DNA of 64,000 bases from Prauserella rugosa (lineage in GTDB: Bacteria > Actinomycetota > Actinomycetes > Mycobacteriales > Pseudonocardiaceae): NCBI RefSeq assembly GCF_000719975.1, contig NZ_JOIJ01000016.1:43462-107461 (forward strand), in the 5' to 3' direction. The notes under the pieces are model-generated. The model worked only from the letters and a program-made list of their open reading frames with translations. It ran no database searches and had not been told where the DNA came from. The position numbers and the translations under genes were made by a program. This document shows positions 39,352 to 43,368 of the stretch, one piece after another (position 1 is the first letter of the stretch; each line of letters begins with the position of its first letter).

Positions 39352-41040
39352 TCACTGCGTGGTGAGCAGGCCGTGACGCAGGGACAGGTGGCGAGTCGGG
39401 TTCAGCGCGGACAGGAATTCGGCGTCGTGGCTGACCACCACCATCGCTCCCTCGTACGCGCGCAGCGCGCTCTCCAGTTGGCCCACACTGACCAGGTCGA
39501 GGTTGTTGGTGGGCTCGTCGAGCAGGAGCAGCTGCGGCGCGGGCTCGGCGAACAGCGTGCACACGAGCGTCGCCCGCAACAGCTCCCCGCCCGACAACGC
39601 GCCCACCCGGCGATGCGCCCCGTCGCCGCGGAACAGGAAGCGGGCCAACAGGTTCATCCGGTCCACCGGTGTCATCGACGGTGCGAACGCGGCGAGGTTC
39701 TCCGCCACCGACCGGTCCGCATCCAGTACGTCCAGCCGCTGCGACAGGTAGGCGACGCGCCCCTCGGCTCGTCGCACACTGCCCGCGTCCGGTTCGACGG
39801 TCCCGGCGATGACCTTCAGCAGCGTCGACTTTCCGGCACCGTTCGGTCCCGTCAACGCGATCCGCTCCGGTCCGCGAATGGCCAGGTCGATCCCCTCGAC
39901 GGCGGTCTCGACGACCTCGCCTTCGGCGTCGACCGTGTCGATCCGCCCCTCGAACAGGTCACGCACCCGGATTCCTTCACCCTGGAACACGGTCCGTCCC
40001 GCGGGCACGCGGGTCTGCGGCAGGTCGACCACGATGGCGTCGTCGTCCCGCAGCGACCGCTCCGCCTCGTCGAGGCGCTGCCTGGCCTGGGACAGGCGTT
40101 CCGAGTGCACGTCGTCCGCCTTCGCCGCCGACACCTGCGCCTTGCGCTTGAGTTCCCCCGCGACGATCTTCGGCAGTCCCGCGTCGGCGACCTTGCGCGC
40201 AGCCGTACCGCTGCGACGCGCGGCACGCTCCCTGGCCTCCTGCATTTCCCGCTTCTCGCGTTTGACCTGCTGCTTGGCGGTGCGGATGCGTTGTTCGGCC
40301 GCGTCCCGTTCGGCCTCGACCGCCTCGGCGTAGGCGGTGAACCCGCCACCGAAGAACCGGATCTCGCCGCCCGGTCGGCTGCTGTCGAGTTCGGCGATGC
40401 GGTCCATCCGGTCGAGCAGCGTGCGGTCGTGACTGACGACGAGCAGACAGCCCGACCATCCGTCGAGCACGTCGTAGAGCGCCTGCCTGGCGTCGGCGTC
40501 GAGGTTGTTGGTGGGTTCGTCGAGCAGCAGCACGTCGGGCTCGGCGAGCAGCTCCGCGACCAGTCCCAGCTGCACGATCTGGCCGCCGGAGAGCGTGTCC
40601 AGGCGGCGGCCCAGTTCGATGCCTCGCAGGCCGAGCCGGTCGAGCAGGGCACGAGAGGTCTCCTCGATGTCCCACGCGTTGCCGACGACCGAAAAGTGGC
40701 GTTCGTCGACGTCCCCGGCCTCGATCGCGGCGATCGAGGCAAGCACCTCGGAGACGCCGAGAACGTCGCCGACCGTGGATTCGGCGCGGTAGGGCAGGGT
40801 CTGCGGCAGGTAGCCGAGCACGCCGCCCACGGTCACCGTTCCCGCGGTCGGCCGATGGACGCCCGCGATGAGCGCGAGCAGCGTGCTCTTGCCCGCGCCG
40901 TTGGGCGCGACGAGCCCCGTGCGGCCGCGGCCGACGGTGAAGGACAGGTCGTCGAAGACGGGGGTGTCGTCGGGCCAGGCGAACGACAGGTGGGAGCAGA
41001 CGATCGAAGCGGGAGTGACGGCGGCGGACACGTCGGACAC
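39352..41040 (-). CDS. ABC-F family ATPase (ribosome-associated type)
   Basis: 562 residues with two ABC domains and no membrane part. First domain: Walker A APNGAGKSTLLALI, signature DTLSGGQIVQLGL, Walker B VLLLDEPTNNLD. A charged linker (about 255-345, Arg/Lys/Glu-rich) follows. Second domain: TGPNGAGKSTLLKVI, ALSGGELLRATLVC, LLLLDEPTNNLD. ABC-F proteins bind the ribosome E site; some protect it from antibiotics. The GTG at 41040 follows GAGG; the longer frame to 41178 lacks a ribosome site. Whether it is housekeeping or resistance is not decided. Confidence 0.9.
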   Translation of the reverse strand: MSDVSAAVTPASIVCSHLSFAWPDDTPVFDDLSFTVGRGRTGLVAPNGAGKSTLLALIAGVHRPTAGTVTVGGVLGYLPQTLPYRAESTVGDVLGVSEVLASIAAIEAGDVDERHFSVVGNAWDIEETSRALLDRLGLRGIELGRRLDTLSGGQIVQLGLVAELLAEPDVLLLDEPTNNLDADARQALYDVLDGWSGCLLVVSHDRTLLDRMDRIAELDSSRPGGEIRFFGGGFTAYAEAVEAERDAAEQRIRTAKQQVKREKREMQEARERAARRSGTAARKVADAGLPKIVAGELKRKAQVSAAKADDVHSERLSQARQRLDEAERSLRDDDAIVVDLPQTRVPAGRTVFQGEGIRVRDLFEGRIDTVDAEGEVVETAVEGIDLAIRGPERIALTGPNGAGKSTLLKVIAGTVEPDAGSVRRAEGRVAYLSQRLDVLDADRSVAENLAAFAPSMTPVDRMNLLARFLFRGDGAHRRVGALSGGELLRATLVCTLFAEPAPQLLLLDEPTNNLDLVSVGQLESALRAYEGAMVVVSHDAEFLSALNPTRHLSLRHGLLTTQ

Positions 41041-41082
41041 GGCTGATTCCTCGGGAGATCGGGCGGACCACGACACTCGACA

Positions 41083-41173
41083 CCACCGGCACGCGCCGGT
41101 GGCTGCTCCGCGGATCAGCGATCGCACCCTGACGAGCCGAGATACGGGCTCTGCCGGGTACGGGCTCTGCCGG
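41083..41173 (-). promoter_or_regulatory. Leader of the ABC-F gene: hairpin and 15-bp direct repeats
   Basis: CCACCGGC (41083-41090) pairs with GCCGGTGG (41095-41102), ending 42 bases before the GTG. TACGGGCTCTGCCGG occurs twice, at 41143-41157 and 41159-41173. ABC-F genes are often controlled by transcription attenuation; this leader could serve that, but no clear leader peptide with its own stop was found. Confidence 0.45.
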
Positions 41174-41326
41174 ACCATGCCGAACGAGTCGGCTCGGGCT
41201 CGGCGATCAACGCGGAGCGGTCAGTGGTCACCCATTTCGTGTTCTCCCAAGAACGGCAACAGGCCGCGTTCGAGGTTACCGGAAGGCAGTGGACCTCGTC
41301 GCGGCATTTTTCCGCGTGCAGTGTGC

Positions 41327-41383
41327 ATATCCACGTGTGGACAAGCCTGTGGACAACTCCGGGTTATCCACAGGCCGTCCACA
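41327..41383. other. Cluster of DnaA boxes
   Basis: Five 9-mers lie in 57 bp: ATATCCACG (41327-41335, weak), TGTGGACAA (41336-41344), TGTGGACAA (41348-41356), TTATCCACA (41364-41372) and CCGTCCACA (41375-41383). The second and third are reversed perfect TTGTCCACA, the fourth is the perfect E. coli box, and the fifth fits the relaxed actinomycete consensus. No dnaA, dnaN, recF or long AT-rich DNA is near, so this is not the normal origin. It occupies the gap between the ABC-F and kinase genes (41041-41480). Confidence 0.75.
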
Positions 41384-41480
41384 AGTGCGGCCGGACATCC
41401 CCAGCCGGCCCTCGCCGAGGCAGGCGCGGCAGCACCGCCGGGCCACGACTGGCTCGGCGGGCTCGACGGGCTCGACGGGC

Positions 41481-42116
41481 TCACACGGCGAAGTTCGGCA
41501 GCTCCATGTCGGTCACGACGAGGTCCGCACGCGCCGCACTGGGCGCCACGAGGTCGGCGTTGCGCTGGTCGGATCCCCACGCGCGCTGCTGTGCCTCCAC
41601 CAGGGAACGCCCGTACTTACGGTGGCGGGTGACCAGCCGTTCGATCCGGACGTCCTCCTCGGGCTGCAGGAACCACGCCTCGGCCAGCAGCGGACGCAAC
41701 TGGGCCCACGGCTCGGTGTCGAGCAGCAGGTAGTTGCCTTCGGTGATCACGAGCGGCACGTCCTCGGGCACGGCCACGGCACCCGCGATCGGCTCCTCGA
41801 TCTCCCTGCGGAACTCCGGCGCGTACACGCGCTCGTCACCGGCGGCGAGCCTGCGCACCAGGTGCGCGTAGCCGACACCGTCGAACGTGTCGGGAGCACC
41901 CTTGCGGTCGGCGTTGCCGAGGCGGGCGAGCTCCACCTGCGCGAGGTGGAAGCCGTCCATTCCCACCACCTTGGCGCGGTTGCCGAGTGCACCGGCCAAT
42001 CGCCAGGCCAACGTCGTCTTGCCCGAGGCCGGGGCGCCCGCGATGCCGAGCACCTTTCGCTCACCGGATGCGGCGAGCGCCTCAGCGCGTGCCAGCAGAT
42101 CGTCGAAAGTCGTCAT
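41481..42116 (-). CDS. P-loop nucleoside/sugar kinase (PanK/uridine-kinase-like)
   Basis: 211 residues from the ATG at 42116 after GGGAG. The Walker A is GIAGAPASGKTTLAWRLA, the acceptor-site motif VVGMDGFHLAQVEL (DGFH is typical of the PRK/pantothenate/uridine kinase superfamily), and the lid ends in RHRKYGRSLVEAQQ. The family includes the FrcK/YggC group linked to sugar transport loci. The gene is divergent from a LacI regulator with LacI-type operators between, so it probably phosphorylates a sugar or nucleoside whose use that repressor controls. Confidence 0.85.
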   Translation of the reverse strand: MTTFDDLLARAEALAASGERKVLGIAGAPASGKTTLAWRLAGALGNRAKVVGMDGFHLAQVELARLGNADRKGAPDTFDGVGYAHLVRRLAAGDERVYAPEFRREIEEPIAGAVAVPEDVPLVITEGNYLLLDTEPWAQLRPLLAEAWFLQPEEDVRIERLVTRHRKYGRSLVEAQQRAWGSDQRNADLVAPSAARADLVVTDMELPNFAV

Positions 42117-42229
42117 CTCGCTCCCATCATCGCCCGTGCCCCACGATGCCGCTGTCCTACCCCACCCCGTGCGGCCGCGGCAGGCCGGGCCGTGATCGAG
42201 ACTGACGGTAGGCAGCGGTATCGTGCCGC

Positions 42230-42253
42230 GCAATCGCCTGCGCAAACGCTTGC
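42230..42253. promoter_or_regulatory. Tandem LacI-type operators
   Basis: GCAAACGCTTGC (42242-42253) has the LacI-family form GCAAnCGnTTGC with central CG. It directly follows a weaker copy GCAATCGCCTGC (42230-42241). They lie between the divergent kinase and LacI genes, 47 bases before the GTG at 42301, suited to control both. Confidence 0.65.
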
Positions 42254-42300
42254 CCGCCCGTTTGCCCGTCCGTCGACACCGGAAGGAGTCCCGCGCACCC

Positions 42301-43368
42301 GTGCCCACGCAGAGGCCTCACCGCCGGCCGACCCAGCGCGACATCGCCGAGCTGGCCGGGGTGTCGATCACCACCGTGTCACACGTCGTGAACGGCACGA
42401 GAGCCGTGGCACCGGCCACGAAGGAGGCCGTGCTCGCGGCGATCGAACAGACCGGCTACACCGGCGACGTCATCGCCCGCTCGCTGGTCACGGGAGGCAG
42501 CAGGACGATCGGGCTCGCGGTCTCACTCAGCGGCAGCCCCCACGTGGCCACCCTCGTCCAGGCGATCGAGCGCGAGGCCGCCGCCGCAGGCTACACGGTG
42601 CTGCTGTCCGACACCCACGACGACGTCGAGACGCAGCGGTCGGTGGTTCGCGCCCTGCGTGCGCACCGCGTCGAGGGACTGCTGCTGGTCTCCGCGCCGG
42701 GAGACAAGGAGGTCGTCGACGAGCTCCTCGCGGCCGAAGTGCCGACCGTGCTGCTCGACCGGCTGACCACGCGCAGCGACGTCGACCAGGTCGGCCCCGA
42801 GAACATCCAGGCCATGTCGGCGCTCACCGAACACGTCGTGGCGCAGGGACACCGGCGGGTCGGGTTCGTCAGCGGACCGGAGGGGCAGGTCACGAGCGAC
42901 GAGCGGGTGCTGGGCCACCGGCTCGGCCTCGGCCGCGCGGGCGTGCCGTGGAACGCCGAACTCGTCGCGGCGGGCGATTTCTCCCGCGAGGGTGGTGCGG
43001 CCGCTCTCGCTCAGTTGCTCACCCTGGCTGAACCGCCCACCGCGGTGCTGGCCGCTGACGACGCGATGTCGGCCGGAGTGCTGCTCGAGGCGCGCAGGCG
43101 CGGCCTGCGGATCGGCACGGACCTCGCGCTCGCCGGGTTCGACGACCCCGAGTGGGCCGATCTCGTCGAGCCGCCGCTGACCACGATGGCCCAACCCGTC
43201 GCCGACATCGGCAGGGAGGCGATGCGCCTGCTGCTGCGACGTTTCGCCGACCCGGAGTGCGACGCGGAGACCGTGCGGCTCAGCCCGCAACTGCGCGTCC
43301 GCGCCTCCTGCGGCGCCGTGTCGTCAAGCCCCCGCGAAACCGCACTGGCGGGAAACCCAACGAAGTAA
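42301..43368 (+). CDS. LacI-family transcriptional repressor
   Basis: 355 residues. HTH: TQRDIAELAGVSITTVSHVVNGTRAVAPATKEAV, with the hinge helix ARSLVTGGSRTIGL. The periplasmic-binding-protein-like ligand domain follows, with GLLLVSAPGDKEVVDELL, the TVLLDRL segment and FVSGPEGQVTSDERVLG. C-terminal LALAGFDDPEWADLVEPPLTTMAQP is the standard LacI end. The GTG at 42301 gives the usual short lead; GGAAGGAG lies 14 bases upstream. The kinase gene is divergent. The effector is probably a sugar or nucleoside. Confidence 0.93.
   Translation: MPTQRPHRRPTQRDIAELAGVSITTVSHVVNGTRAVAPATKEAVLAAIEQTGYTGDVIARSLVTGGSRTIGLAVSLSGSPHVATLVQAIEREAAAAGYTVLLSDTHDDVETQRSVVRALRAHRVEGLLLVSAPGDKEVVDELLAAEVPTVLLDRLTTRSDVDQVGPENIQAMSALTEHVVAQGHRRVGFVSGPEGQVTSDERVLGHRLGLGRAGVPWNAELVAAGDFSREGGAAALAQLLTLAEPPTAVLAADDAMSAGVLLEARRRGLRIGTDLALAGFDDPEWADLVEPPLTTMAQPVADIGREAMRLLLRRFADPECDAETVRLSPQLRVRASCGAVSSSPRETALAGNPTK

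What the first reader, a model, noticed from the sequence alone, without database searches (positions are those of the whole stretch)
41327..41383. DnaA-box cluster far from any replication gene
Four good and one weak DnaA box lie within 57 bp: two TTGTCCACA (reverse), one TTATCCACA, one CCGTCCACA and one ATATCCACG. Chance occurrence of so many in a high-GC genome is very low. No dnaA, dnaN, gyr or parA gene is near and there is no long AT-rich unwinding region, so it is not a normal oriC. Clusters outside oriC that titrate DnaA are known in E. coli (datA) and Streptomyces. This may be such a site or a DnaA-controlled promoter for the ABC-F or kinase gene.
Basis: partly seen in the sequence, partly recalled or inferred. 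Interest (0 to 1): 0.72.

Follow-up and report, generated by a model that had tools for sequence, protein, structure and literature searches.

The report
Conserved DnaA-binding cluster near replication origin
A short stretch between two ordinary genes carries a tight group of landing sites for the protein that starts DNA replication; close relatives keep it at the same place, and it most likely acts as a sponge that helps time when the chromosome is copied.

Summary
Three exact DnaA boxes (TTRTCCACA) and one weak one lie in 48 bp (41336-41383); the fifth (41327) is poor. In the 5.2-Mb draft genome it is the only place with three exact boxes within 60 bp; the presumed oriC between dnaA and dnaN has none. 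All 7 congeneric genomes held, and several sister genera, keep the cluster directly 3' of the same kinase gene, box 2 and box 3 inverted and 16 bp apart; most of the family lacks it. Sister genera have no ABC-F gene beside it, so it did not arise as the ABC-F promoter. Where dnaA shares its contig (7 genomes) it lies 168-241 kb away. A second trio of the same layout lies about 11 kb from dnaA. Exact boxes are enriched near dnaA in three relatives. Best reading: an extra-oriC DnaA-box cluster that titrates DnaA, as proposed in Streptomyces and Bacillus. DnaA binding is untested; a terminator hairpin is the main rival. New member of a known kind.

The parts
41364..41372 (+). DnaA box 2, TTATCCACA (exact); inverted relative to box 3, 16 bp start to start
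41348..41356 (-). DnaA box 3, TTGTCCACA (exact); an exact box in all 15 orthologues compared
41336..41344 (-). DnaA box 4, TTGTCCACA (exact); 12 bp from box 3 in all 7 congeners (exact in 5, CTGTCCACA in 2), not at this spacing in the 8 other orthologues
41375..41383 (+). degenerate box 1, CCGTCCACA (2 mismatches); in 13 of 15 orthologues a box with 0-1 mismatch faces box 2 here
41327..41335 (+). fifth 'box' ATATCCACG (2 mismatches); kept as GTGGA sequence in congeners but not as a good box
41332..41387 (.). nested near-palindrome formed by the boxes; stem-loop potential in RNA
41481..42116 (-). nucleoside/nucleotide kinase family protein (PRK09270.1-2; start codon inferred); the cluster lies just 3' of it
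39352..41040 (-). ABC-F ATPase gene downstream (start codon inferred); at this place found only in the window's genus

Best explanation
The cluster is an extra-oriC DnaA-box cluster. DnaA binds the strong boxes, probably cooperatively, at a locus copied soon after initiation. Its duplication then takes up free DnaA and so damps re-initiation at oriC, whose own boxes all differ from the consensus here. Shown: the boxes, their fixed geometry, conservation at one locus within a clade, position near dnaA in relatives, and enrichment of exact boxes around dnaA. Inferred: DnaA binding, titration, and any effect on initiation timing.
For: TTGTCCACA is listed as the high-affinity DnaA box of Streptomyces coelicolor and Mycobacterium tuberculosis (table in PMC4285127, passages seen). 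Kinase homology alone, without using the boxes, recovered the cluster in 9 of 30 loci examined (the 30 best of 50 matches in 47 of 60 genomes): all 7 of the genus plus G020 and G026. In these 10 genomes box 2 to box 3 is always 16 bp and inverted; box 3 to box 4 is 12 bp in 7 of 7 congeners. A pattern search on the dyad hit 21 of 297 family genomes, reversed control 0; in 14 of the 21 it lies 3' of this kinase. Of 12 genomes searched for dnaA, 9 have the cluster and 7 of these have it on the dnaA contig: G073 168 kb and G020 189 kb (assuming closed circles), G070 202, G112 205, G002 213, G026 215, G004 241 kb. All four listed places with three exact boxes within 60 bp in G073, G020 and G009 lie within 190 kb of dnaA. 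Box sites within 200 kb of dnaA (boxes within 400 bp merged): G073 14 of 69, expected 4.6, P 1.7e-4; G020 12 of 73, expected 4.3, P 1e-3; G009 8 of 47, expected 3.4, P 0.017 (6 of its 56 boxes unlisted); windows of 100 and 500 kb gave P 0.0003-0.017. A second trio of the same layout lies about 11 kb from dnaA (G000, G020 and G073); in G000 it sits between two convergent genes. The presumed oriC has 7 one-mismatch boxes and no exact one.
Against: No DnaA binding data. The cluster is confined to one clade: 21 of the 30 loci and 76 of the 80 loci lack it, among them all 16 labelled Amycolatopsis and 3 labelled Saccharomonospora. Two of the 21 (G007, G025) have a box pair of another layout within 300 bp of the kinase. 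The genome has 48 other exact boxes, two of them flanking the oriC region outside dnaN and dnaA (C1:366536, C1:373239), so one cluster can hold only part of the DnaA. In the window's own genome box 1 is degenerate and the contig is not joined to that of dnaA, so its distance to oriC is inferred from relatives. The inverted boxes make strong hairpins, with arms that in four orthologues extend beyond the boxes. [quoted passage not shown] subtilis (PMC5295017, passage).
Confidence: 0.6

Rival explanations
1. The palindrome works as RNA: a stem-loop that ends or protects the kinase transcript; the DnaA-box look is a by-product.
For: Strong stem-loop just 3' of the kinase. In G005, G020, G026 and G073 the box 1/box 2 arms extend beyond the boxes with different but complementary letters.
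Against: No T run: 0 terminator-like sites found in 41000-41600. The pairing partners change between relatives (boxes 2:3 plus 1:4 in G000, 1:2 in G005), and box 2:box 3 mismatches fall at positions where DnaA boxes vary. The same boxes recur elsewhere as direct repeats, which do not pair with each other. It does not explain nearness to dnaA.
Confidence: 0.17
2. DnaA bound here regulates transcription: as a road-block to read-through from the kinase, or as an upstream site for the next promoter.
For: In 13 of 15 orthologues my ORF filter found a gene or ORF on the kinase strand downstream of the boxes (none passed it in G020 and G105). In G070, G073 and G105 the last box stands 37-39 bp before a TAGGCT or TACGCT element.
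Against: The downstream gene differs (ABC-F in the genus; a glyoxalase/VOC-type ORF elsewhere, confirmed by family search in P. cavernicola only) while the boxes stay. The distance to the promoter-like sequence differs between congeners. In G000 the second trio lies between convergent genes.
Confidence: 0.15
3. The boxes are recognised by another protein, or descend from a dispersed repeat that carries TTRTCCACA pairs.
For: Direct pairs 18-19 bp apart and a longer module with one box are dispersed in up to about 100 copies in some relatives.
Against: At this locus the cluster is fixed in place and of different geometry; the dyad occurs once per congeneric genome; exact boxes are enriched around dnaA.
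Confidence: 0.08

Closest known systems
Streptomyces coelicolor DnaA-box cluster (Smulczyk-Krawczyszyn et al. 2006; paper not held; known here from a passage of PMC5742627, and from recall)
   Same: Outside oriC, in an actinobacterium, strong TTGTCCACA-type box; recalled to lie near oriC and to bind DnaA better than oriC
   Different: No binding or deletion data here; homology of the loci not tested
Bacillus subtilis DnaA-box clusters (Okumura et al. 2012, not held; via passages of PMC5295017)
   Same: Several clusters per genome outside oriC, oriC-proximal by the paper's title
   Different: Clade-specific here; function not shown; the review itself doubts a significant role in B. subtilis
E. 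coli datA
   Same: Near-oriC DnaA-box cluster with conserved location
   Different: datA needs an IHF site (PMC10380432, passages); none was looked for here
E. coli DARS2 core
   Same: 13 of 15 orthologues have a head-to-head box pair, 5 at the 14-bp spacing read in the DARS2 region
   Different: The third box points the other way and is 16 bp off; the window's own copy has no good box 1

Membership tests
extra-oriC DnaA-box cluster (titration type) | three or more strong DnaA boxes in a short stretch outside oriC | tested here: met
extra-oriC DnaA-box cluster (titration type) | location near oriC | tested here: met
   168-241 kb from dnaA in 7 relatives; not measurable in the window's own draft
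extra-oriC DnaA-box cluster (titration type) | conserved position and box spacing | tested here: met
   within the clade only; absent from most of the family
extra-oriC DnaA-box cluster (titration type) | binds DnaA; removal causes early or extra initiation | not testable with these tools
   needs experiments
oriC | next to dnaA/dnaN with an AT-rich unwinding region | tested here: not met
   dnaA and dnaN are on contig C1, the cluster on C16; 60% GC
datA | IHF site placed between essential boxes | not tested
   no IHF consensus for this clade was used
DARS | three boxes as > < <, head-to-head pair I/II | tested here: not met
   window: box 1 degenerate, third box inverted
intrinsic terminator | GC-rich stem followed by a T run | tested here: not met
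   stem present, no T run, 0 sites in scan

The most novel reading that the evidence does not exclude
The trio > 12-16 < 16-18 >, repeated at two dnaA-proximal loci in this clade, is an actinobacterial DnaA switch: a head-to-head pair plus a third box that forces DnaA-DnaA contact and changes its nucleotide state (as DARS or datA do in E. coli), rather than a passive sponge. The window's own copy, with box 1 decayed and box 4 gained, would be a modified form.
Probability: 0.1. Interest if true: 0.8.

Novelty: new member of a known kind. Interest (0 to 1): 0.5.

Why it matters
How actinobacteria limit initiation is less well known than in E. coli (general knowledge). A clade-conserved cluster of perfect boxes beside an oriC made only of imperfect boxes, with a second trio of the same layout close to dnaA, gives a defined pair of deletions to test titration against an active DnaA switch. 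My searches of the held library for DnaA box with Amycolatopsis and for DnaA boxes with 'outside oriC' and Mycobacterium returned two papers each; from titles and abstract starts none is about such a site in this clade. Subscription papers are mostly not held.

Tried and rejected
Rfam on 40800-42400: no match at E <= 1. Promoter and terminator consensus scan of 41000-41600: 0 found. tRNA genes beside box sites: none in 14 loci. oriC reading: rejected. ABC-F promoter as the original role: rejected, because the cluster is present where no ABC-F was found. DARS membership: rejected on geometry; a scan of the uvrB-ybhK region for the DARS1 boxes showed none at up to one mismatch, so only DARS2 served for comparison. 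G267 was left out of the oriC-distance test because only 100 of its 272 boxes were listed; the boxes of G002, G004 and G006 were counted but not listed there; G073 and G020 were listed in full. For G009 the length was entered as 5.6 Mb, rounded; the contig has 5,551,297 bases. The pattern fixes box 2 and box 3, so conservation of those letters in the loci found only by it (G070, G073, G105, G112, G286) is not independent evidence; only the kinase-led set (7 congeners, G020, G026, P. cavernicola) is. Downstream regions of 30 of 50 kinase matches were examined. One of the 4 dyad places of G086 was fetched. The 7 dyad loci away from the kinase were not studied further.

Full report
What is there. 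The window lies in a 5.2-Mb draft genome of 98 contigs. Contig lengths and places tie congener G002 to Prauserella isguenensis CECT 8577 and G001 to Saccharomonospora sp. CUA-673, so the host is a Prauserella-type actinobacterium (inference). Between a nucleoside/nucleotide kinase family gene (ending at 41481, minus strand) and an ABC-F gene (minus strand, start near 41040) there are three exact DnaA boxes and one weak one in 48 bp. They form a nested near-palindrome, 41332-41387.

Chance. The genome holds 51 exact TTRTCCACA against 19 for the reversed pattern, and this is the only place in the list with three within 60 bp. At the observed box rate such a place has a probability of about 9e-6 in the whole genome. 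The presumed oriC, between dnaA and dnaN on contig C1 (both confirmed by family search), has seven one-mismatch boxes and no exact one. Two exact boxes flank that region outside the two genes.

Conservation. A protein search with the kinase found it in 47 of 60 genomes, own included. Of the 30 loci fetched, 9 carry the cluster directly after the kinase: all 7 of the genus, G020 and G026. In named genomes 4 of 80 kinase loci carry it; three of them are G001, G002 and G026 again, so P. cavernicola is the one addition. In these ten genomes box 2 and box 3 are always inverted and 16 bp apart. Box 4 follows at 12 bp in all 7 congeners. Counting also five loci found by pattern, box 1 stands 12-16 bp before box 2, facing it, in 13 of 15; it is degenerate in the window's genome and in G001. 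Searching the family for the dyad alone hit 21 of 297 genomes, control 0, and in 14 of these it lies after the same kinase. In the other seven genomes it lies elsewhere. Against this, none of the 16 named Amycolatopsis loci has the cluster, so it is a clade feature. In the eight orthologues outside the genus no ABC-F gene was found next to it: seven have DedA within about 1.7 kb, and six of the eight have a VOC-type ORF (family confirmed in P. cavernicola). The boxes are therefore older than the ABC-F neighbour or independent of it.

Place on the chromosome. In the 7 genomes where dnaA and the cluster share a contig they are 168-241 kb apart (the two shortest figures assume circular closure); in G005 and G006 they are on different contigs. 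In G073 (82 exact boxes), G020 (95 on C1) and G009 (50 of 56 listed) box sites are enriched within 200 kb of dnaA, and all four listed triple-box places lie within 190 kb of it. One of them, in G073, has the same > < > layout about 11 kb from dnaA. Matching sites with one one-mismatch box lie about as far from dnaA in G020 and in the window's genome (C1:382575); in the latter it sits between a GNAT gene and an amidase gene that converge. Similar sequences appear in all 7 congeners.

RNA or DNA? The boxes make a strong hairpin in RNA, but its pairing partners differ between relatives, and box 2/box 3 mismatches fall at degenerate positions of the DnaA box. In four orthologues the arms extend beyond the boxes, so a transcript-end role alongside DnaA binding is not excluded.

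Mechanism. TTGTCCACA is the listed high-affinity box of S. coelicolor and M. tuberculosis (PMC4285127, passages). [quoted passage not shown] subtilis (PMC5295017, passages). Strong boxes that should be replicated early, beside an oriC of imperfect boxes, fit titration. Binding and effect are inferred, not shown.

DARS comparison. In E. coli K-12 the rppH-mutH region reads > 14 < 12 <; that this is the DARS2 core is recalled. The review says the head-to-head pair is essential in DARS (PMC10380432, passages). Five of the 15 orthologues share the > 14 < pair, but the third box is placed differently and the window's copy lacks a good box 1. It is not a DARS by this test; a DARS-like action in relatives remains open and is the most novel reading.

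Noticed in passing
G000 C1:406285, C4:66291, C5:83332, C7:133767 (18 bp); C17:61456, C19:64686 (19 bp); relatives: Exact DnaA boxes often come as direct pairs 18 or 19 bp apart, with 0 in the reversed control of 17 genomes; four in this genome share a spacer like NCGNCCCRG, and congeners carry near-identical ones. G007 has 107 pairs within the gap range searched. G020 has 11 neighbours at 18 bp, at least one of them inverted.
   Followed up: partly
L012 2619-2690 (C1:191618), L172-L187, L188-L217: A dispersed module: TTRTCCACA, then 37-40 bp in the listed matches (30-45 allowed), then TAGGCTG or TACGCTG and a C6/G-rich hairpin-like sequence. In 17 of 120 family genomes, control 0; 102 copies in G007, 69 in G076, 64 in G035. 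In 4 of 8 loci looked at it does not point at a gene start. No Rfam match at the module in the loci scanned. It also follows the kinase-locus cluster in G070, G073 and G105.
   Followed up: partly
window 41221-41235 and 41273-41311, minus strand: The ABC-F leader holds a tiny reading frame (ATGGGTGACCACTGA after GGGAG), a TAACCT element and an upstream AAAAATGC; L024, L025 and L027 show similar sequence. It may be an antibiotic-responsive leader of the WhiB7/attenuator kind (recalled, not tested).
   Followed up: no
L010 4522-4567 (G000 C32): A long inverted repeat, CGCCTCAGTTGTCCACA facing TGTGGACAACTGAGGCG, between two divergent ORFs, perhaps an operator.
   Followed up: no
G000 C1:50010-50070 (L001 3011-3071): A second dense site with TTATCCACA, TTGTCCACG, TTGTCCACA and TTGACCACA beside a DUF445 gene; the same sequence type appears in all 7 congeners.
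   Followed up: no
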